IMG/VR virus record: IMGVR_UViG_3300022935_002565
Location: 1 to 23,047 of that record
DNA: 23,047 nt
Source of the DNA: a virus
Strand: one strand, 5' to 3'
In this document: positions 764 through 15,948 of the stretch, in pieces
Position numbering within the stretch: position 1 is the stretch's first letter
Layout of the letters: the number at the start of each line of letters is the position of its first letter
Program-made: the position numbers and the translations under genes
The notes under the pieces: model-generated
The model's database searches: none
What the model saw: the letters and a program-made list of their open reading frames with translations, nothing else
Told to the model about the DNA's origin: nothing

Positions 764-1939
764 ATGTCTACTGAATGTAAGTTGGCTAAACTAGCACTTA
801 ACTTCGACATGAGCGGAATGGTGCAACCTTGCCATCTCACAGAATACTTCCTCAAGGATAAAGACGGAAGGCATTTTAATGTGCTGACAGATGATGTCAA
901 AGATATCTGGAACAGCGAACATAGAAAAAAACTGCTAGACGATCATGCCAACGGAATAAAAAACCCAACGTGTAAACTTTGTTGGGATATGGAAGAGACC
1001 GGTGTAGAATCAATGAGGCAGAGCCAAAACAATCTTTTAAAAGATGTAGAAGTACTGGAACAACCACGCGTGATGGTAGTTAAACCCGGGAATCTATGTA
1101 ATAATGCCTGCAGAAGTTGTAATGCTCATACCAGCAGTATGTGGTACAAGGACGACCATGCTATGAACCATGAGAATACGAGCTTCAAAGAATACTTAAA
1201 ATTTTTTCAACGGCACAAGACAGCGTACACTAACAATCAATTGCTGGAAAACAGGTTTGCCAAGTGGGAAGATAAGATTATAGAGTGGGATATGTTTGGG
1301 GGAGAACCTTTAATTGTTCCTCTTTTTTATAAGATTCTGAATCAGTCTTGTACAAGTGAGAACGTCCACACAAAAAACTTTAATGTTCACACTAATGGAA
1401 TGATTTATTCGGAAGGACTGATAAAAAAACTCAGTAAGTTTCGTGAGTCTCACATGGGATTCAGCATAGACGCCATAGGCGAAAAAAATGATTACATCAG
1501 ACACGGTAGTAAATGGGATAACATCATTAACAACTTAAAAAGATATGTTGAGGATTGTGCAGAATATCCTAATGTTTCGATCACGGTGCGGACAACCATA
1601 ACTCCCTGGAACATTTATCACTATGATGAAAATTTTGAATATTTTAGCAAGATGGGTATCCTTGCCATCGGATGTTGGTGTAATGATAAGCCGTGGAATG
1701 ATCTTAGATATCTTCCGGAAAATGTAAAAAAAAATGTACTAGACAAATTATTATTATACAAAAACAATAGAGATGAATGGCAAGAACTAATTGTTGATTT
1801 AACGAAATGGATGATGTCACGTCCTGCCGATTATAACAAATTAAAAAATTCTTTTATGGAATTCAACAAGACGCTAGATGAATTGAGGGGACAAAAATTT
1901 GAAAGCGTGTTCCCCGAATACTCTAAACTTTTTACATAA
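764..1939 (+). CDS. Radical SAM protein with N-terminal twitch-like domain
   Basis: A 391-residue protein. An N-terminal cysteine set (C5, C23, and CxxC at 70/73) resembles the half-SPASM (twitch) domain that precedes the barrel in N-twitch radical SAM proteins. The cluster-binding CxxxCxxC is at 112/116/119 in GNLCNNACRSC. It is followed by the GGEP motif (179-182), which contacts the SAM amino group in this superfamily, and by a strand ending in HTNG. The chemistry should be reductive SAM cleavage to a 5'-deoxyadenosyl radical; the substrate is unknown. The ATG directly follows the previous stop, and the next gene starts one base after this stop, so the three radical SAM genes probably form one transcript. 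The second domain is missed if only the core motif is searched. Confidence 0.85.
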   Translation: MSTECKLAKLALNFDMSGMVQPCHLTEYFLKDKDGRHFNVLTDDVKDIWNSEHRKKLLDDHANGIKNPTCKLCWDMEETGVESMRQSQNNLLKDVEVLEQPRVMVVKPGNLCNNACRSCNAHTSSMWYKDDHAMNHENTSFKEYLKFFQRHKTAYTNNQLLENRFAKWEDKIIEWDMFGGEPLIVPLFYKILNQSCTSENVHTKNFNVHTNGMIYSEGLIKKLSKFRESHMGFSIDAIGEKNDYIRHGSKWDNIINNLKRYVEDCAEYPNVSITVRTTITPWNIYHYDENFEYFSKMGILAIGCWCNDKPWNDLRYLPENVKKNVLDKLLLYKNNRDEWQELIVDLTKWMMSRPADYNKLKNSFMEFNKTLDELRGQKFESVFPEYSKLFT

Positions 1940-1940
1940 C

Positions 1941-3239
1941 ATGGGCATATCTAAGCAACCTCCAAAACCTTTCCCCATCAAAAAGGGACTGCCTTGTCAG
2001 CTCAAATGGACACACAGTACGATCTATCTCACAGACGGAGTCAGCGCGAGTTGTCATAGGGTCCTAGGAGATACGTTAGAAGTGCGCGATGGAGAACTCA
2101 ACTTCCACAACTTGCCCGCCAAACTGGAAGCGCGGAGGAAGATGTTGCGTGGCGAATGGCCCGGTCGTGGCTGTGAGCACTGCAAACACATCGAGGAGGC
2201 CGGTGGCACTTCAGACAGGATGATTCATTTAAATCTAGAGGGAACGACAGCACCGCCGGAACTGGACACAGACTTGGAAGCGGTCGACGTCACCCCGAGG
2301 CAGTTGGAGGTATACTGGGGCAATACATGCCAGCAATCATGTATATACTGTGGAGCCCATTACAGCTCGACCATACAGCAGGAAGAAAAAAGGTTTGGGG
2401 AGTTCAATGTTGAAGGTGTGCGCTTAAGAAATGATTGGGAAAAGAATCCTAACATAGAGCAACACACGGAATTACTTTTCAAATGGTTTGAAAAACATTT
2501 ACACAAATTACACAAGATATTCGTTATGGGGGGAGAACCTTTCCTACAGAAGGAGACATTCAGGTTCATAGAGTTCCTGGAGAAGGGAGACTATCCGGAT
2601 CTCACATTGGTTTTTTTCAGCAACCACAACATAGAAAATGAGAGATTCAAGGGATGGATCGATAGATTAGATCGACTACAGAAGTCGGGTAGACTAGACA
2701 AGATACAATTATTCTTCAGTTGTGATGCATTTGGTCCGGAAGGAGAATATGTGAGGACTGGACTGGATTTAGATATTGCTGTTAAGAACTTTGAACACAT
2801 ACTACACAACACAAACATAGAACAGGGTATAAACTCCGCCCTCACTGTGACCGCCGTCCCGGGAATGCCAGCCATGGTAAAATACATCAACGAATGTAGC
2901 AAGATCAAACCCATCTACTGGAGCATGATGAAAGCAAATCAATACGAGTTATCCCCGCGACCATATATGTATCCAGGAATTTTTGGTGATAAAATCAATC
3001 AATGGGGTCTCAAAGAAGCAGTCGAGATGTTTGATACAAATTCTCATGGATATCCCGATTCAGTAAAGGTTTCACATAAAAGATACATGAAGGGTGCGAT
3101 GCAAGAGTTTGAAAAACGAGATCCTAATACCTTTAGACAGAAGCAATTTAAAATATGGCTTAATGAACTAGATCGTAGACGTGGTACCGATTGGAAAGTA
3201 ATTTATCCACAGATTTGGGAACTAGTAAAAGACTTGTAA
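1941..3239 (+). CDS. Radical SAM protein with N-terminal twitch-like domain (second copy)
   Basis: A 432-residue protein with the same design as its upstream neighbour. The N-terminal cysteines are C19, C38 and a CxxC at 78/81. The radical SAM CxxxCxxC lies at 130/134/137 (GNTCQQSCIYC) and GGEP at 197-200, followed by FFSNHN. I chose the ATG at 1941, one base after the preceding stop. An upstream ATG at 1899 would overlap the previous gene by 41 bases and adds no recognisable sequence. No clear Shine-Dalgarno sequence is seen, so translation may be coupled. Its composition looks richer in G+C than the preceding gene, especially in the first half, so the two may have been acquired separately. 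The stop abuts the stop of the convergent gene at 3240. Substrate unknown. Confidence 0.85.
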   Translation: MGISKQPPKPFPIKKGLPCQLKWTHSTIYLTDGVSASCHRVLGDTLEVRDGELNFHNLPAKLEARRKMLRGEWPGRGCEHCKHIEEAGGTSDRMIHLNLEGTTAPPELDTDLEAVDVTPRQLEVYWGNTCQQSCIYCGAHYSSTIQQEEKRFGEFNVEGVRLRNDWEKNPNIEQHTELLFKWFEKHLHKLHKIFVMGGEPFLQKETFRFIEFLEKGDYPDLTLVFFSNHNIENERFKGWIDRLDRLQKSGRLDKIQLFFSCDAFGPEGEYVRTGLDLDIAVKNFEHILHNTNIEQGINSALTVTAVPGMPAMVKYINECSKIKPIYWSMMKANQYELSPRPYMYPGIFGDKINQWGLKEAVEMFDTNSHGYPDSVKVSHKRYMKGAMQEFEKRDPNTFRQKQFKIWLNELDRRRGTDWKVIYPQIWELVKDL

Positions 3240-8408: not shown

Positions 8409-8968
8409 TACAGTTCCTTGAATTTCTTTAATATGTCAGTGTTGGGCAGTTTGGCCTGTAGTTGCTGTTGTAGCCTGTGTAGGGTCTGAATCTTCATCTT
8501 TGAATCCAACTTTGTGTAGTTTGCCACTGCTCGCCTTATATTCTTGAGGTTGGCGTCTGTTATGTTAAGTGCCCTCTCAAGATGTGTTAGATTCTTGTAA
8601 TGATCCTCCCAGGTCCTTAGGTATCTCCTCAGCGCCATCACCGGTACCGGCTGTCTCTGTCTCATGGCCTGTGCTTGGTCCTTGTTCTTGAGCTTCTTGG
8701 TTATCTCAGGATCACCCGACACGATGGCCAACATGTTTGATAGATCATTGTTGATCATCCTCACTTGGTCGAATGTGCCCTTGGCCATGGTCTGGTCCGC
8801 ATATGATTTAGCGAACGATTGTGTGTCCTTGTTCTGACTCATCAGGGCTAGTGCCAGGAAACTGAGGTATATCCTCTCAGTGACCTCTGGGAAAGTGTAT
8901 CTCTGCAAGTCACTATGTCGCCTTATGACCTTGCCCTCAGATACATACTTTAAAAATGGTGTTAACAT
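8408..8968 (-). CDS. Helical phage protein of unknown function
   Basis: A 186-residue protein from ATG 8968 (MLTPFLKYVSEGKVIRR), strongly helical with many Gln, Lys and Arg and a leucine-rich basic C-terminal half. A start at 9010 would run across the promoter motif and into the divergent gene, so I prefer 8968. It has no Shine-Dalgarno sequence and sits five bases after TATAAATA, suggesting a leaderless message. It leads a four-gene operon with the two ten-cysteine genes and the FkbM methyltransferase, all overlapping or within two bases of each other. No motif indicates an activity. Confidence 0.7.
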   Translation of the reverse strand: MLTPFLKYVSEGKVIRRHSDLQRYTFPEVTERIYLSFLALALMSQNKDTQSFAKSYADQTMAKGTFDQVRMINNDLSNMLAIVSGDPEITKKLKNKDQAQAMRQRQPVPVMALRRYLRTWEDHYKNLTHLERALNITDANLKNIRRAVANYTKLDSKMKIQTLHRLQQQLQAKLPNTDILKKFKEL

Positions 8969-8973
8969 ACAGG

Positions 8974-8981
8974 TATTTATA
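8974..8981 (-). promoter_or_regulatory. Perfect T4-late promoter element TATAAATA
   Basis: The minus strand carries an exact TATAAATA (8981-8974) in the 19-base gap between divergent genes, five bases before the ATG at 8968. T4 late transcription normally starts about six bases past this element, which is at the ATG itself. Confidence 0.65.
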
Positions 8982-8987
8982 GGGCTT

Positions 8988-10025
8988 ATGCAACGAAACT
9001 TTATTCTCACAGACGTAATGAAGACTGGCTTTCATCAGGACCTCGAGAATTTTATTTCTATGCACAGTATAAAGGATCAAACTTTTGAAATGACTGGAGA
9101 ATATTACTCCTTACATGGCTACGACTTGGACAGTTTCGATCGTAAATTTGCAATAATTGATATGAGGACGGCAAATATCAGACTGAAAGATAATGAAGAG
9201 TTCAACACAGAATTAGAAAGACGTTGTAAATTACTACATAGCCAGGGATTTGTCTTTATAAAATCCAACCCATGGGAGTCATTGGAGAACATCAACAATA
9301 CAGTACAATATCCAGAAATAGAGATAGAACATGTAAGGTGGACAGGAGGGGTAAGTTGGTTTTGGTATTATATGTACAACAAGCACAAAGATAAAACATT
9401 TGACTTCGACCACTCTAACAAGAAATACGATTTCCTATATCTGAACAAGATGTCCAGACCACACAGGACAAAACTTTATGACAAATTAATAGATAAGGGT
9501 GTATTAGAAAACAGCCTATACACATCGTGGCCGAGTAGGAAACTGCCTGCCGAGTACGAACTGCCATGGGCACAGGACTATCCACAGTACGGCATGGATC
9601 AAGACATATTTGAAAAGCCATACAACGACACTGCCTGTAGTATCGTGTCAGAGACCAACGACAACGATTATGAAGTGTTCATGACCGAGAAAATATGGAA
9701 GCCAATTATCGCACAACAGTTTTTCATCGTGCATGGCAATTACCTATATCTGCAGAAGTTGAGAGAGATGGGATTTAAAACTTTCAACAATTACTTCGAA
9801 GAGGTTTATGATTTAAACAGACATCCTGGCGCAAGGATCGATACCATCGTTGACGTGTGTGATAGACTTCGTGATGCCCCGTGGCAAGACATGTATCTGC
9901 AAAGTCAGGCACTACGACAATACAATTACAATCACTTTTTCAATGCAGAAAAGTTAAGCAATGAAATTAATAAAACTTTGAATCTATTTCTTGAATTTGC
10001 TGATAGCCGTCAAGTTCCTTCTTGA
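8988..10025 (+). CDS. Glycosyltransferase-like protein with GT10/fucosyltransferase-type C-terminal motif
   Basis: A 345-residue protein from ATG 8988; an upstream ATG at 8880 would run into the divergent gene. The C-terminal half carries CSIVSETNDNDYEVFMTEKIWKPI (TEKIW at 233-237) followed by FFIVHGNYLYLQKLREMGFKTF. This resembles the donor-binding segment of GT10 fucosyltransferases and related GT-B enzymes, where a Glu-x-Asn, a TEK-x-W and a Gly contact the nucleotide sugar. The N-terminal half is unlike standard families. Two relatives with the same signature lie at 21505-22602 and 22599-23047. Its last 42 bases overlap, antisense, the end of the gene at 9984-11198. Confidence 0.7.
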   Translation: MQRNFILTDVMKTGFHQDLENFISMHSIKDQTFEMTGEYYSLHGYDLDSFDRKFAIIDMRTANIRLKDNEEFNTELERRCKLLHSQGFVFIKSNPWESLENINNTVQYPEIEIEHVRWTGGVSWFWYYMYNKHKDKTFDFDHSNKKYDFLYLNKMSRPHRTKLYDKLIDKGVLENSLYTSWPSRKLPAEYELPWAQDYPQYGMDQDIFEKPYNDTACSIVSETNDNDYEVFMTEKIWKPIIAQQFFIVHGNYLYLQKLREMGFKTFNNYFEEVYDLNRHPGARIDTIVDVCDRLRDAPWQDMYLQSQALRQYNYNHFFNAEKLSNEINKTLNLFLEFADSRQVPS

Positions 10026-11198
10026 GAATCCTAATCTATCCACAAGTTTGACAGCATTACCTGACTTGTCAACAGCGACAAATCCTTCTGGCTCTGTGAC
10101 CTCCAGTCCGCCGTCCGTCTGTTGGAATGATCCTATGGCCTGTGCTTGGTTCATTTTTTTGAGTACGAATGCTTTCATTGTCTGCACCGCTCTATAGAAA
10201 GTTAGCATGGCCTGTAATGGCTTCTTTGCCCTGTTAAGGAACACGGGCATCTGTTTCATCTTATCTTGTCTCAGTTGTAGAGCCTTCTGTGCTTTCAGTC
10301 CTGACATTTGCTGTTGCATTCTATCGTTGTAGAATTTCTTAAAGCCTAGTAGAAACTTGTTTGCATCGTTTGGCAGTTGTCCTTGTCTCACCATGGCGTT
10401 TATGTACATCTGGAACATGGGTATGAAGTCTTGGTTCTGCCCCAGCACACTTGATAGATTCCTTGGCACACTGTTCAACAGGTTCTCAAGTTTCTCTATT
10501 CCGTTATAGAATTGTTTTGTTTCATCGTCAGTGAACTTAGCACTGCCAGACACGTCTTTGTAAGTGGCATTGTCAAAGAACACATCATTGCTCTTGGCGA
10601 ATGAACTCACGTCTGCTCCTCCCTGTGCGTTCATGTCCGCTAGGGCATCTCCCACGTATGTTGTGTGGAATATAATCCCCACCTTTGCTCTATCTATCTG
10701 TTTACCTAGATCACTTGCTTCTGGCACTGCGTATGTGATTGTGTTGGGTGTAAATGTTAAATTGGGTTTGCCGTCCACGTTCTTACGTGTGATGTCCTCG
10801 TCTGTGAACAACAAGTCTCCCTGAACAACACCCTGTATGTTCAGTTTTTTAAGATGCACAAGACACTTCAACAACTTCTGTCCTAGGTCGTCTGTACCGT
10901 GATTGTTCGCTATGTCTCGCTTGGTATAATTGATCTTTGCGTTCTTGGCGAACACTGATTTGGTGCCCACAAAGAACTTACCGTTGTCTGGATTGGTACC
11001 ACACACCACAGCAGGTGCACCGTCCCATTTCACAGACACACTCATGGCCTCTGAACTTGTGCCTTTGAGTGTCAGTAGTAGTCCCCTGAAGTATTCCAAG
11101 ACCGCCTTGCCGCCCTCGTAGCCGTCGGTTATAACTATGTCCTCGATGTGTTCAAGGTGTGTCCTCTTAAACTCTGTTAGGACATCTTCTATCAACAT
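9984..11198 (-). CDS. Putative covalent nucleotidyltransferase (ligase-like KxDG protein)
   Basis: A 404-residue protein. Five segments fall in the order seen in ATP-dependent DNA/RNA ligases and capping enzymes: SVKWDGAP (K57-W-D-G60, motif I with the lysine that would take AMP), VFAKNAKIN (80s), VQGDLLF (125-131, motif III), EGFVAV (371-376, motif IV) and VKLVDR (383-388, motif V). About 240 residues separate motifs III and IV, far more than in compact ligases. That insert is helical and Gln/Met-rich, so the enzyme is unusual or degenerate. I believe related proteins in marine T4-like phages are annotated only as an unknown-function family (DUF6267), but I have not verified this. AGAGGA precedes the ATG at 11198, and the gene is three bases after its upstream partner. 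Confidence 0.7.
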   Translation of the reverse strand: MLIEDVLTEFKRTHLEHIEDIVITDGYEGGKAVLEYFRGLLLTLKGTSSEAMSVSVKWDGAPAVVCGTNPDNGKFFVGTKSVFAKNAKINYTKRDIANNHGTDDLGQKLLKCLVHLKKLNIQGVVQGDLLFTDEDITRKNVDGKPNLTFTPNTITYAVPEASDLGKQIDRAKVGIIFHTTYVGDALADMNAQGGADVSSFAKSNDVFFDNATYKDVSGSAKFTDDETKQFYNGIEKLENLLNSVPRNLSSVLGQNQDFIPMFQMYINAMVRQGQLPNDANKFLLGFKKFYNDRMQQQMSGLKAQKALQLRQDKMKQMPVFLNRAKKPLQAMLTFYRAVQTMKAFVLKKMNQAQAIGSFQQTDGGLEVTEPEGFVAVDKSGNAVKLVDRLGFSRRNLTAISKFKK

Positions 11199-11201
11199 TG
11201 G

Positions 11202-11501
11202 TTAGTCCTCTTTGTATTCGCCGTCTTTGATTTTAAGCAGATTTTCTTTGACGTCTCTGTTCTCTTTGATACGAGCAACGCCTTTGCTGAATTTGGATGC
11301 ATCCATGTTCTTGAGTGCTGAATTGAATTTCTTCTCTAGTTTGAATGCTGTGTCTTGATCGAAATTCTCTCTTATATAGGTCATCAGTCTTATGGCACTT
11401 TCCAGGATGTGAGAAGCCCTGCTCTCCACGACCTCCTCTTTGTCTCTCCTAAGAGGCATTGAGCTCAATTCTTCTAATAAACTTCTAGTATGTTTCTGCA
11501 T
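11202..11501 (-). CDS. Small helical phage protein of unknown function
   Basis: A 99-residue, highly charged helical protein (MQKHTRSLLEELSSMPLRR, then a SRASHILESAIRLMTYI segment). It resembles short conserved proteins of marine T4-like phages, though this was not searched. It directly precedes the KxDG protein (three-base gap), so the two are probably co-expressed and perhaps functionally linked. The ATG at 11501 has no Shine-Dalgarno sequence but lies six bases after TAAATA on the minus strand, suggesting a leaderless transcript. No catalytic residues are apparent. Confidence 0.7.
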   Translation of the reverse strand: MQKHTRSLLEELSSMPLRRDKEEVVESRASHILESAIRLMTYIRENFDQDTAFKLEKKFNSALKNMDASKFSKGVARIKENRDVKENLLKIKDGEYKED

Positions 11502-12896: not shown

Positions 12897-13473
12897 ATAC
12901 CTGTATTCCTTTGTGTGCGTAATTATGTATCCTTCCCTTTGTGTCAGGAAAACTTATATCTAATAACCTACACAGGTCAACATTGTCTTTGGGTTGATGA
13001 ATCTTATCTTTGTTATCTTTGATGAACTGCATTGTGTCTCGGTTCTCTGCCTGTATGTGTTCCCACATGAGGTCGAGGTTTACAAAGTGTTGGTAGTTGG
13101 GATATGTGATTGTGAACTCGCCACAAAGTTTCCACCATTCAAGGCACTCAAAATCGTTCCTGTACACCATCACTATGGGATGGCCTAGATCCTTGAGATG
13201 GTCAAGTTCGTGTGCGAAAGTGTGTGACTTTATGATTCGCTTGCCTGTGCCCGAGAAAGGAAGATCCCAATTATCCCTTGTTGCCCTGAACTCCATTCCC
13301 GGATCAAAGTATGCTCCAATGTGCATGAGATGACTGCGTCCAGGGGTATCGGCATCGTGCCAGTAGGTCCTTGCTTCAGAATAGTCAGTGTGATCTATGT
13401 CCTCACTCCAGTAGATATTCTTGACGACACTACTCCATTTTGATCCCGGTGCCCCTGTGAACAGTATGTACAT
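12883..13473 (-). CDS. P-loop sulfotransferase-like protein
   Basis: A 196-residue protein opening MYILFTGAPGSKWSS. Residues 7-15 form a phosphate-binding loop similar to the 5'-phosphosulfate loop of PAPS-dependent sulfotransferases. RIIKSHTFAHELDHL and IVMVYRNDFECLEWW follow, the latter placed like the 3'-phosphate-binding strand and helix (R-x(7)-W). The fold therefore looks like a small cytosolic sulfotransferase, but a nucleotide kinase-like activity cannot be excluded because the catalytic base is not clear. Its ATG shares one base with the tctC-like stop (TAATG), so it is coupled to the transporter genes. Confidence 0.65.
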   Translation of the reverse strand: MYILFTGAPGSKWSSVVKNIYWSEDIDHTDYSEARTYWHDADTPGRSHLMHIGAYFDPGMEFRATRDNWDLPFSGTGKRIIKSHTFAHELDHLKDLGHPIVMVYRNDFECLEWWKLCGEFTITYPNYQHFVNLDLMWEHIQAENRDTMQFIKDNKDKIHQPKDNVDLCRLLDISFPDTKGRIHNYAHKGIQVYVYK

Positions 13474-14519
13474 TATTTGGTCAGCTCTTCTTTGTACACA
13501 GCATTGTAACCCAACTGATTCTTTCCAAAGTCAGACAGTGTTTTCAATGCACCCGGTGTGATGAATGACTTCAGCGTCCTCACTGCGGCGTCACCCTCTG
13601 CACCCGTTCTCCATTCGTACTTGCCAACCTTCTTCTCGATGGCGGCCACCGACTCTGGATCCTTGATCATCTTGTCCAAAGCGGCAACAAGTTTCGCTTT
13701 GTTTGGATTGCCCGCGTTCACCCAGAATGCTTTCTGTAATGCATCTCTCCAACTTTTGACCAGTTTGTATGCATCATAGAAGTCACCACTCGGTGCGACT
13801 CCGTATGTGGATTCATACAGTGCTTCGAATGTTGGCTCTGTGAAGTTTGGATCAGCATCATGCTCACCCGTTTTTACATTCAGTAGTCCATGATGGAACC
13901 AAGTGTATGCGTCACCTTTGCCTATCACTGGCATCACGTGTTTCTTGTATGCGGCAGGGTTCTCCCTTGTAGCGTTCAAGTCACCTCTGATGAATGCAAG
14001 TCTCCTCTCTGAACCTTTCATACCTTTTACCCATACTATTTTTTCTTCAAATGTTTTTACTGGATCACCGTCAGGTCCTGTAAGCAACATAACGATTGCC
14101 ATGATCTCTGGGGTCATTCCAGATCCTGACGGAAACTGTATAGGTCCGTTTTTCGTGTCTGCCTTGTTCCTTGCACCCACAATGATGTTAAGGTTCATGT
14201 GTCCCACTGATTCCCAATCAAAGTAGTTGTACTCAACTGGCTCCACAAGATACGATATACCATTACCACCGTGTGATACTAATATGGTCTTGTCGTCGAA
14301 CCTCAGTTTATTTTGGAACTCGTTCGGTCCCAGTTGATCTCTTGCACCTGGCTTGTAGATAAGATTGATCTTCTCACCCAGGTGTTTCTCCCATTCCGCT
14401 ACAACTATCTGTGCCCACACAGAAGTTCCACCAGAAGGTTTTTGAGGCACGATCAAGTTGTAATCTGCCAAGGCTGTTGTTGTCATTAACACCAACGCCA
14501 TTATTGTTTTCTTAAGCAT
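13473..14519 (-). CDS. tctC: TctC-like periplasmic substrate-binding protein (tripartite tricarboxylate transporter family)
   Basis: A 348-residue protein with a clear Sec signal peptide: KK at 3-4, hydrophobic 5-15, and TALA before D19. The mature part starts with an IVPQKPSGGTSVWAQIV strand-loop matching the TctC/Bug ligand loop. A two-lobe body follows, with VSHGGNGISYLVEP, MTPEIMAIVMLL and a GAPSGDFYDAYK-like hinge region. Such proteins capture di- and tricarboxylates or related acids in the periplasm and deliver them to TctA. The gene overlaps tctA by eight bases. No TctB small subunit is present; the next gene is sulfotransferase-like. Confidence 0.85.
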   Translation of the reverse strand: MLKKTIMALVLMTTTALADYNLIVPQKPSGGTSVWAQIVVAEWEKHLGEKINLIYKPGARDQLGPNEFQNKLRFDDKTILVSHGGNGISYLVEPVEYNYFDWESVGHMNLNIIVGARNKADTKNGPIQFPSGSGMTPEIMAIVMLLTGPDGDPVKTFEEKIVWVKGMKGSERRLAFIRGDLNATRENPAAYKKHVMPVIGKGDAYTWFHHGLLNVKTGEHDADPNFTEPTFEALYESTYGVAPSGDFYDAYKLVKSWRDALQKAFWVNAGNPNKAKLVAALDKMIKDPESVAAIEKKVGKYEWRTGAEGDAAVRTLKSFITPGALKTLSDFGKNQLGYNAVYKEELTK

Positions 14520-15948
14520 AGTCTAATCGACTCCTTTTTGTTATTCCCCAATACAGTAGCAGTATAACACATGCCATCAAGAAAATAAAGATAGGTCTTG
14601 TTATTAAATCATTTACTGTATGTAAGGATGTTAGTTGATAAGTGAGGTTATAAATCCTGTCACTCAATATGTACCCAATCAACAGTGCTGGCCTGCTGAC
14701 TTGGAATTTTTTACAAAGCACTCCGAATATAGAGAATGCTGTCAGTACCGCTAGGTCTTCCCACCCTCCTGTGTACTGTAAGGTTGCCCAAACAATCACA
14801 GCAAGTATGAAAGGGAAATAGTAAACGTATGGAATACGTGTCACCCACCCTGCGAAATATGCCAGTCCATAACACAAGACGGCAGTGATGATCGTTCCAA
14901 GCAGGAACGCATAAGTCATGCTGTCAAATAATTTGTCGTCGTAGAACGTATCAGGTGATCCCAGATCGATGCCTAGGTATAGAAACAATCCCATCAGTAT
15001 CGCGGCGAAACTAGCACCTGGTATACCAAATAGCACAGTGGGAATGAATGACGAGGCCTTCTGTGCATTGTTGGCACCCTCGGCGCCCACCACTCCTCTT
15101 ACATTACCATCACCAAACTTCTCCTTTGGATTGGCCGCGACCGTGGCACCGTATGCCAACCAGTCCGCCATTGCACCACCCAGTCCAGGTAGCAGTCCTA
15201 TGAAAGAACCTATGGCGCCACCTCTAATACTATCCTTCCAACATCGTACAGTATCCTTGACCCCTTGTTTGAGATCATTCCAACTGCCGTGTTCTGCCCG
15301 TATCGTTGTGGTCTTCTTCCTGTTGAACCATCCGTCCCAGAGCTCTGGTATGGCGAAAAGTCCTGCCATGTAAGGTAAAATCTGTACACCGTCTTCGAGG
15401 TATCGCCAACCCATCGTGAATCTCGGCACATTGTTCACATCAACACCTACCAGTCCAACGGTCACACCTATGACAATAGCAAGTACACTCCTAACATATT
15501 TCCTAGTGGACACAAATCCCACAGTGACAAATGCCAATAGTACCAATGCCCACAGTTCGGGTATGCCCATGTACATCACAACTTTGGTGTACCAAGGCAA
15601 GAATAAAAATGTTAGTGATCCCCAGAACAGACCATTGCATGTTGATGATGTGATAGCGGCTGAAAGAGCCCTAGTGGCCTCACCGTTCTTGGCCATGGGG
15701 AATCCATCCACCATGGTGGCCGCCGCTGAGTTGGCTCCTGGTATGCCCAACAGCACGCCTGCGAATGAATCACCGGTTGTTGAGGATGCCACAACTGCCA
15801 CACAGAATATCACGCCCAGGTAGGGATCTCCTACGAAGTAGGGCATGACTCCAAATAGTGTGATAAGACCTGTTGTTGCTCCCGCGGCTGGTATTAGGCC
15901 AATGATTAAGCCGTAAACAATACCCGCCATTAATATAGCAAGTTCCAT
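14512..15948 (-). CDS. tctA: TctA-like large membrane permease (tripartite tricarboxylate transporter family)
   Basis: A 478-residue, strongly hydrophobic protein of near-normal length for TctA. The family's duplicated halves are both present: GLIPAAGATTGL (17-28) with GIPGANSAAATMVDGFPMAKNG in the first, and GLLPGLGGAMADW (251-263) with a second GIPGASFAAILMGL in the other. About ten to twelve membrane segments are visible. TctA is the permease that moves carboxylates inward using an ion gradient after delivery by TctC. The gene looks intact with no frameshift. It is the first gene of a leftward cluster that overlaps tctC. Phage carriage of a full-length permease is unusual. The substrate cannot be read from sequence. 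Confidence 0.88.
   Translation of the reverse strand: MELAILMAGIVYGLIIGLIPAAGATTGLITLFGVMPYFVGDPYLGVIFCVAVVASSTTGDSFAGVLLGIPGANSAAATMVDGFPMAKNGEATRALSAAITSSTCNGLFWGSLTFLFLPWYTKVVMYMGIPELWALVLLAFVTVGFVSTRKYVRSVLAIVIGVTVGLVGVDVNNVPRFTMGWRYLEDGVQILPYMAGLFAIPELWDGWFNRKKTTTIRAEHGSWNDLKQGVKDTVRCWKDSIRGGAIGSFIGLLPGLGGAMADWLAYGATVAANPKEKFGDGNVRGVVGAEGANNAQKASSFIPTVLFGIPGASFAAILMGLFLYLGIDLGSPDTFYDDKLFDSMTYAFLLGTIITAVLCYGLAYFAGWVTRIPYVYYFPFILAVIVWATLQYTGGWEDLAVLTAFSIFGVLCKKFQVSRPALLIGYILSDRIYNLTYQLTSLHTVNDLITRPIFIFLMACVILLLYWGITKRSRLDYA

What the first reader, a model, noticed from the sequence alone, without database searches (positions are those of the whole stretch)
9984..11198. KxDG protein with a full set of ligase/capping-enzyme motifs and a large insert
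K57-W-D-G60, VQGDLLF, EGFVAV and VKLVDR occur in the order of motifs I, III, IV and V of covalent nucleotidyltransferases, but about 240 helical residues lie between III and IV. It may be an unrecognised RNA/DNA ligase, RNA end-modifying enzyme, or nucleotidylated structural protein. Its neighbour at 11202-11501 is a likely partner.
Basis: partly seen in the sequence, partly recalled or inferred. Interest (0 to 1): 0.65.

Follow-up and report, generated by a model that had tools for sequence, protein, structure and literature searches.

The report
Hidden ligase-fold enzyme in marine phages
A protein of unknown function (DUF6267) carried by hundreds of ocean viruses of bacteria turns out to have the predicted fold and the invariant catalytic residues of enzymes that join RNA or DNA strands, so it is probably an unrecognised ligase-type enzyme with an unusual helical insert.

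Summary
The ORF is real (minus strand, 404 aa, dN/dS about 0.02) and is Pfam DUF6267/phrog_455, a family without assigned function, found in 466 phage records (mostly marine T4-like cyanophages, also pelagiphages and methylophages). Two separate AlphaFold2 models (404-aa long form, pLDDT 91.5; 297-aa short form, 94.2) align best with covalent nucleotidyltransferases: 49 and 50 of the 50 PDB entries listed are RNA, tRNA or DNA ligases (Naegleria RNA ligase first, Z 8.4 and 8.7). Profile comparison links it, far above shuffled controls, to unannotated KxDG proteins of jumbo phages (PA5oct, Phosso, Atu_ph07), encoded near a homologue of the window's 99-aa neighbour. The insert is about 130 helical residues, not 240. 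No OB fold follows motif V, so it is neither a canonical DNA ligase nor a capping enzyme. Most likely a polynucleotide-ligase-like enzyme forming a lysyl-AMP at K57. Substrate open: 9 of 10 DUF6267 phages first checked lack any recognisable ligase, but S-CRM01 and DLP6 carry both; T4-type end-healing kinase is absent. New variant of a known kind; activity untested.

The parts
9984..11198 (-). DUF6267 gene, 404 aa, predicted covalent nucleotidyltransferase (ligase fold)
11206..11211 (-). Shine-Dalgarno-like AGAGGA, inside the end of the upstream gene
   Evidence: sequence printed
11019..11030 (-). motif I, K57-W-D-G60 (predicted nucleotidylated lysine K57)
   Evidence: 249/249 for K57, D59, G60
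10959..10967 (-). G78-T-K80, conserved; K80 invariant (position of motif Ia, inferred)
10806..10826 (-). V125-QGDLLF131, motif III position (D128 where classical enzymes have E)
   Evidence: Q126 and D128 249/249; strand 124-132 in model
10731..10748 (-). P151-NTITY156, signature shared with jumbo-phage nucleotidyltransferases (PNVIEY, PNSIRY)
10656..10679 (-). G174-IIFHTTY181, strand at the position of motif IIIa (inferred)
   Evidence: T179 249/249; H178 and Y181 248/249
10143..10529 (-). helical insert, residues 224-352, with conserved N267, R271 and K342
   Evidence: DSSP of model; conservation
10071..10088 (-). motif IV, E371-GFVAV376
   Evidence: T4 Rnl1 has EGYVAV at the same place
10035..10052 (-). 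motif V, V383-K-LVDR388
   Evidence: K384 243/243, R388 242/242
9993..10037 (-). C-terminal helix; the chain ends here, no OB or other C-terminal domain
11202..11501 (-). 99-aa upstream neighbour, phrog_11854 'virion structural protein', probably co-transcribed (inferred)

Best explanation
DUF6267 is a phage family of covalent (lysyl-NMP) nucleotidyltransferases with the RNA-ligase fold. K57 attacks the alpha-phosphate of ATP (or another NTP) to give an enzyme-K57-NMP; E371, K384 and probably D128, K80 and R388 bind metal, ribose and phosphates; the NMP is then passed to a 5'-phosphate end and the strands are sealed, as in T4 Rnl2 or Naegleria RNA ligase. Instead of an N- or C-terminal accessory domain, a helical insert between motifs IIIa and IV would hold the nucleic acid. 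Shown here: predicted fold in two models, residue invariance, homology to a second phage KxDG family, synteny with replication genes in related phages. Inferred: NMP transfer, ATP as donor, strand joining, roles of single residues. My estimates: nucleotidyltransferase fold 0.93, catalytically active through K57 0.85, strand joining 0.6, RNA rather than DNA as main substrate 0.5.
For: Models with pLDDT 91.5/pTM 0.87 and 94.2/0.88. VIA-align over Foldseek's top 1000: for the long form 49 of the 50 entries listed are ligases (Naegleria RNA ligase Z 8.4, 181 residues, 3.7 A; TbREL1 7.5; T4 Rnl2 7.2; T4 Rnl1 6.8; the one unrelated row is a BAR protein); for the short form all 50 are (Naegleria 8.7; T4 Rnl1 8.0). 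The aligned ends put E265 and K277 of the short form 26 and 14 residues before the end, as E312 and K326 lie 27 and 13 before the end of the Naegleria ligase domain (the mutated residues are named in the PDB titles). Catalytic residues invariant. HHalign with the PA5oct/Phosso/Atu_ph07 KxDG proteins: scores 49.8 and 52.0 against at most 22.4 in 150 column shuffles per profile, matching motif I to PNxIxY with one profile and motif IV-V with the other. In Phosso and Atu_ph07 that gene is followed by a protein with a Pol-beta-type GS...DxD motif, as RNA-ligase-associated RlaP enzymes accompany RNA ligases (PMC7824862). DUF6267 lies in the uvsX-gp41-mazG replication cluster of cyanophages. T4 carries three ligases and no DUF6267; 9 of 10 DUF6267 phages first checked show no hit to four ligase families.
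Against: No activity has been shown. Foldseek alone finds no significant PDB match (best E 0.17 and 0.13), and Z 8-9 is near the level that unrelated models can reach. Direct sequence comparison with T4 Rnl1, Rnl2 and gp30 is not clearly above controls, except that with Rnl1 it lands on motif IV-V. Motif III has D instead of E, and motif V has V386 and R388 rather than K-x-K. No accessory domain at either end. T4-type polynucleotide kinase/phosphatase is not found in the ten cyanophage-type DUF6267 genomes or DLP6, which speaks against classical tRNA-break repair.
Confidence: 0.75

Rival explanations
1. It is the replicative nick-sealing DNA ligase of this phage lineage, replacing the T4 gp30 ligase that cyanophages lack.
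For: Nine of ten DUF6267 phages have no PF01068 or PF01653 match, whereas T4 has gp30; the gene lies among uvsX, gp41 and gp61 genes; Petrov et al. 2010 note that many quasicore replication genes, a group that includes gp30, are missing from one or more marine cyanophages (PMC2993671).
Against: S-CRM01 and DLP6 carry both DUF6267 and a DNA ligase, and PA5oct and Phosso carry a DNA ligase beside the homologous protein. No OB fold with motif VI, which DNA ligases need. Host LigA could serve.
Confidence: 0.2
2. It uses the lysyl-NMP to modify something other than a strand break: a nucleic-acid end (adenylylated or capped 5' end), a protein or a small molecule, in a pathway with the HIGH-type nucleotidylyltransferase that is often next to it or fused with it.
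For: In the P-RSM6-like clade 61 of 64 loci have the cytidylyltransferase-like gene within 2.5 kb (median gap 4 nt), and two MAG contigs carry a fused 939-aa ORF; BFVD lists a 591-aa S-PM2 protein of this make-up. That neighbour is in the S-SZBM1 virion (PMC9146016).
Against: The window clade (0 of 73) and the short-form clade (0 of 37) have no such gene nearby, so the core reaction does not seem to need it. Capping enzymes of known type need an OB domain.
Confidence: 0.17
3. It keeps the fold but is a catalytically dead binding or scaffold protein of the virion or replisome.
For: Neighbouring genes in several phages encode virion proteins; motifs III and V deviate from the classical form.
Against: Lys, Asp, Gly and Glu of the reaction centre are invariant down to about 30 percent identity; the protein was not detected in the S-SZBM1 virion.
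Confidence: 0.07
4. The resemblance is accidental and the fold unrelated to ligases.
For: Foldseek E-values are not significant.
Against: Two models, almost only ligases in the alignment lists, and matched spacing of catalytic residues; homology to a second family with textbook KxDG and EGxV motifs.
Confidence: 0.04

Closest known systems
DUF6267 (PF19782) / phrog_455
   Same: The protein is a full-length member: 358 bits over residues 13-398.
   Different: The family has no function in Pfam or PHROGs, and no paper in the held library names it.
Naegleria gruberi RNA ligase, nucleotidyltransferase domain (5cot, 6vt0 and others)
   Same: Best structural match (Z 8.4 and 8.7); spacing of motif IV and V residues from the domain end agrees.
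   Different: About 10 percent identity; the Naegleria enzyme has an N-terminal accessory domain (established knowledge; most alignments start at its residue 143-145), here there is a helical insert between IIIa and IV.
T4 RNA ligase 1 (Rnl1, PF09511)
   Same: Fold (Z 6.8 and 8.0); motif IV reads EGYVAV...FK against EGFVAV...VK.
   Different: No Rnl1 C-terminal helical domain; no Pfam match apart from one weak hit in 119 members.
T4 RNA ligase 2 / RNA editing ligases (Rnl2, REL1, PF09414)
   Same: Fold (Z 6.9 to 7.6), overall order of motifs.
   Different: No C-terminal domain, motif III D for E, no significant sequence match.
Unannotated KxDG proteins of jumbo phages: PA5oct gp256, Phosso 446, Atu_ph07 gp066
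   Same: Homologous by profile comparison; share KxDG, PNx(I/V)xY, EGxV; the gene lies downstream of gp41 helicase and of a homologue of the window's 99-aa neighbour.
   Different: Long C-terminal extension after motif V, E at motif III, no HLEHLED-type N-terminus.

Membership tests
DUF6267 (PF19782) | score above the curated cut-off over most of the model | tested here: met
   358.2 bits against 27, profile 2-374 of 376
Covalent nucleotidyltransferase superfamily (DNA/RNA ligases, capping enzymes) | motif I KxDG with invariant lysine | tested here: met
   249/249; 201 of 201 homologues with the separate FVGTK pattern keep KxDG
Covalent nucleotidyltransferase superfamily | motif III glutamate | tested here: inconclusive
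   QGD with D128 invariant at the expected strand; assigned by order and by the jumbo-phage family, not by coordinates
Covalent nucleotidyltransferase superfamily | motif IV EGxV | tested here: met
   E and G 244/244
Covalent nucleotidyltransferase superfamily | motif V with essential lysine (K-x-K) | tested here: inconclusive
   first lysine K384 invariant; second position is V386, with R388 invariant
Covalent nucleotidyltransferase superfamily | nucleotidyltransferase fold | tested here: met
   two models; VIA-align lists are ligases almost throughout, best Z 8.4 and 8.7; Foldseek alone not significant
Covalent nucleotidyltransferase superfamily | lysyl-NMP intermediate | not testable with these tools
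   needs biochemistry
ATP-dependent DNA ligase / mRNA capping enzyme | C-terminal OB fold with motif VI after motif V | tested here: not met
   the chain ends 16 residues after R388 in a single helix
T4 Rnl1 family (PF09511) | Pfam model match and helical C-terminal domain | tested here: not met
   one member of 119 at E 0.017 only; no C-terminal domain
T4 Rnl2 family (PF09414) | Pfam model match | tested here: not met
   window protein has no match up to E 1; none of ten DUF6267 genomes has a hit, so not at the DUF6267 genes either
Any RNA or DNA ligase | joins 5'-phosphate and 3'-OH ends | not testable with these tools
   needs biochemistry

The most novel reading that the evidence does not exclude
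DUF6267 and the jumbo-phage KxDG family form a new class of strand-joining enzyme, outside Rnl1, Rnl2, DNA ligases and RtcB, in which a helical insert between motifs IIIa and IV replaces the accessory domain; in one large lineage it works as one unit with a HIGH-superfamily nucleotidylyltransferase, making a two-step end-modification and sealing system carried by a large share of marine T4-like phages.
Probability: 0.35. Interest if true: 0.75.

Novelty: new variant of a known kind. Interest (0 to 1): 0.58.

Why it matters
DUF6267 is present in at least 466 sequenced phages and common in marine viral contigs, yet has no assigned function. A ligase-type fold gives it a testable reaction, may answer how T4-like cyanophages and pelagiphages manage with no recognisable ligase of their own, and adds a compact ligase architecture that could be of use as a reagent.

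Tried and rejected
Single-sequence search of the PDB found nothing useful; an HMM of 119 members gave only weak matches of the helical part to ribosomal proteins, taken as composition. HHalign against T4 Rnl1, Rnl2 and gp30 gave no significant score. Foldseek without VIA-align had weak top rows. The idea of a replacement DNA ligase was weakened by phages that carry both. Classical tRNA repair was weakened by the absence of T4-type polynucleotide kinase. An obligatory partnership with the cytidylyltransferase was rejected for the window's clade and the short-form clade. A virion structural role was checked in the S-SZBM1 proteome and not found. Plasmids hold no homologue. The coordinates of the models are not given out, so a residue-by-residue superposition of the active site could not be made.

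Full report
What is there. The interval 9984-11198 holds one open reading frame on the minus strand, 404 codons from ATG. The window is a 23-kb virus record. The start codon lies 3 nt behind the stop of the 99-aa gene 11202-11501, with an AGAGGA motif in that gene's last codons, so the two are probably translated together. The protein matches Pfam DUF6267 (358 bits) and phrog_455, both of unknown function. Close relatives differ mainly at silent sites (median dN/dS 0.023).

Conservation. 466 of 50,697 phage records encode a homologue: mostly Synechococcus and Prochlorococcus T4-like phages, with Pelagibacter phage HTVC008M (42 percent identity), Methylophilales phages Melnitz and Stenotrophomonas phage DLP6. 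Viral contigs gave 240 loci and bacterial or archaeal assemblies 37, mostly MAG contigs. In 249 aligned proteins K57, D59, G60, K80, Q126, D128, N152, Y156 and T179 are invariant, as are E371, G372, K384 and R388 in all that reach them. Searches used KxDG or FFVGTK patterns, which could favour K57; but one search used patterns that do not touch K57, and all 201 proteins with the FVGTK pattern also have KxDG. Long (about 400 aa) and short (about 297 aa) forms exist; they differ mostly in the helical insert and in the loop after motif III.

Fold. AlphaFold2 with 119 aligned proteins gave pLDDT 91.5 and pTM 0.87 for the window protein, and with 79 gave 94.2 and 0.88 for a short form. Foldseek against the PDB was not significant for either, though T4 Rnl1 was third for the long form, and DNA ligases and T4 Rnl2 led the short form. 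VIA-align 2 over Foldseek's best 1000 chains ranks Naegleria gruberi RNA ligase first both times (Z 8.4, 181 residues, 3.7 A; Z 8.7, 176 residues, 3.6 A), then RNA editing ligase, T4 Rnl2, fungal tRNA ligase, T4 Rnl1, archaeal RNA ligases and DNA ligases; only a BAR protein among the long form's 50 rows is unrelated, and all 50 rows of the short form are ligases. Z near 8 can occur through a common arrangement, so the weight lies on the agreement of the rows, on coverage of the whole domain and on the spacing: in the short form E265 and K277 fall 26 and 14 residues before the aligned end, E312 and K326 of the Naegleria enzyme 27 and 13. Strand and helix order fits: motif I ends strand 53-57, motif III lies on 124-132, the IIIa position on 173-182, IV on 372-376, V on 382-386, then one helix and the end.

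Sequence links. Against T4 Rnl1, HHalign picks exactly motif IV-V (EGYVAV...FK) but at no significant score. A second link came through the neighbour. The 99-aa protein has homologues in a few large-genome phages only (25 records, the 15 listed all 285-470 kb); in those looked at it follows the gp41-type helicase gene directly or after one small gene. Two or three genes further on, PA5oct gp256, Phosso 446 and Atu_ph07 gp066 encode proteins with KIDG or KLDG, with PNVIEY, PNSIRY or PNTVVY, and with EGYV or EGVV, followed by K(I/V)VDK in two of them. DUF6267 profiles match this family at HHalign scores 49.8 and 52.0; 150 column shuffles of it reach at most 22.4 per profile, and unrelated T4 proteins at most 20.8 with the short-form profile. 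One profile aligns motif I through PNxIxY, the other motif IV-V, at consistent places. Phosso 446 itself has a weak RNA_ligase hit over its motif I to III part (E 0.085). So DUF6267 belongs to a wider phage family of KxDG nucleotidyltransferases that is not annotated.

Context and function. In cyanophages the usual order is DNA polymerase, uvsX, 2OG-Fe oxygenase, gp41, mazG, DUF6267, cytidylyltransferase, large ORF. The HIGH-type cytidylyltransferase-like gene is within 2.5 kb downstream in 61 of 64 loci of the P-RSM6-like clade and in 22 of 30 genome contigs, fused in two, but absent near the gene in the window clade (0 of 73) and the short-form clade (0 of 37). In the S-SZBM1 virion proteome the cytidylyltransferase and the next ORF were detected, DUF6267 not (PMC9146016; the match of the paper's numbers to genes rests on protein lengths). 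Ten DUF6267 phages were searched with PF01068, PF01653, PF09414 and PF09511: only S-CRM01 had a ligase, while T4 has three and no DUF6267. DLP6 and, with the homologous protein, PA5oct and Phosso have DNA ligases too. T4-type kinase/phosphatase is missing from these cyanophage-type genomes, so substrates with ready 5'-phosphate and 3'-OH ends are more likely than classical tRNA breaks. In Phosso and Atu_ph07 the next gene carries a Pol-beta-type motif (GS...DxD, by eye), as RlaP enzymes accompany RNA ligases (PMC7824862).

Verdict. Most likely it is a polynucleotide-ligase-like enzyme with a lysyl-AMP at K57. What it joins or modifies is open. It is a new variant of a known kind: a ligase core without OB or other terminal domain, with an insert between IIIa and IV, D at motif III and R at the end of motif V. 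No paper in the held library names this family; other literature could not be searched.

Noticed in passing
window 13473-15948 (-): A TctA-type transporter (PF01970, 318 bits) beside a 348-aa protein with a signal-like N-terminus that may be its binding protein: possible phage-borne tripartite tricarboxylate transporter.
   Followed up: no
window 764-3239 (+): Two radical SAM proteins in tandem, the first with a SPASM domain.
   Followed up: no
L321:1819-4635 and L322:285-3101: 939-aa ORFs that fuse DUF6267, a HIGH-type nucleotidylyltransferase (GRMNPPTKGH) and a third domain with GDVKIGDYQVEVKS, which resembles a PD-(D/E)xK nuclease motif (by eye only).
   Followed up: partly
L323:9119-10459, L326:7025-8260, L329:6049-7023: Unannotated KxDG nucleotidyltransferases of jumbo phages PA5oct, Phosso and Atu_ph07; in Phosso and Atu_ph07 a Pol-beta-like protein is encoded directly after.
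   Followed up: partly
window 8880-10025 (+): A 381-aa ORF converges on and overlaps the 3' end of the DUF6267 gene by 42 nt; a match is found in all 80 close relatives.
   Followed up: no
L085, L086 (P-SSM2, ACG-2014f): The short form lies among many tiny ORFs, away from the replication cluster, unlike most long forms.
   Followed up: no
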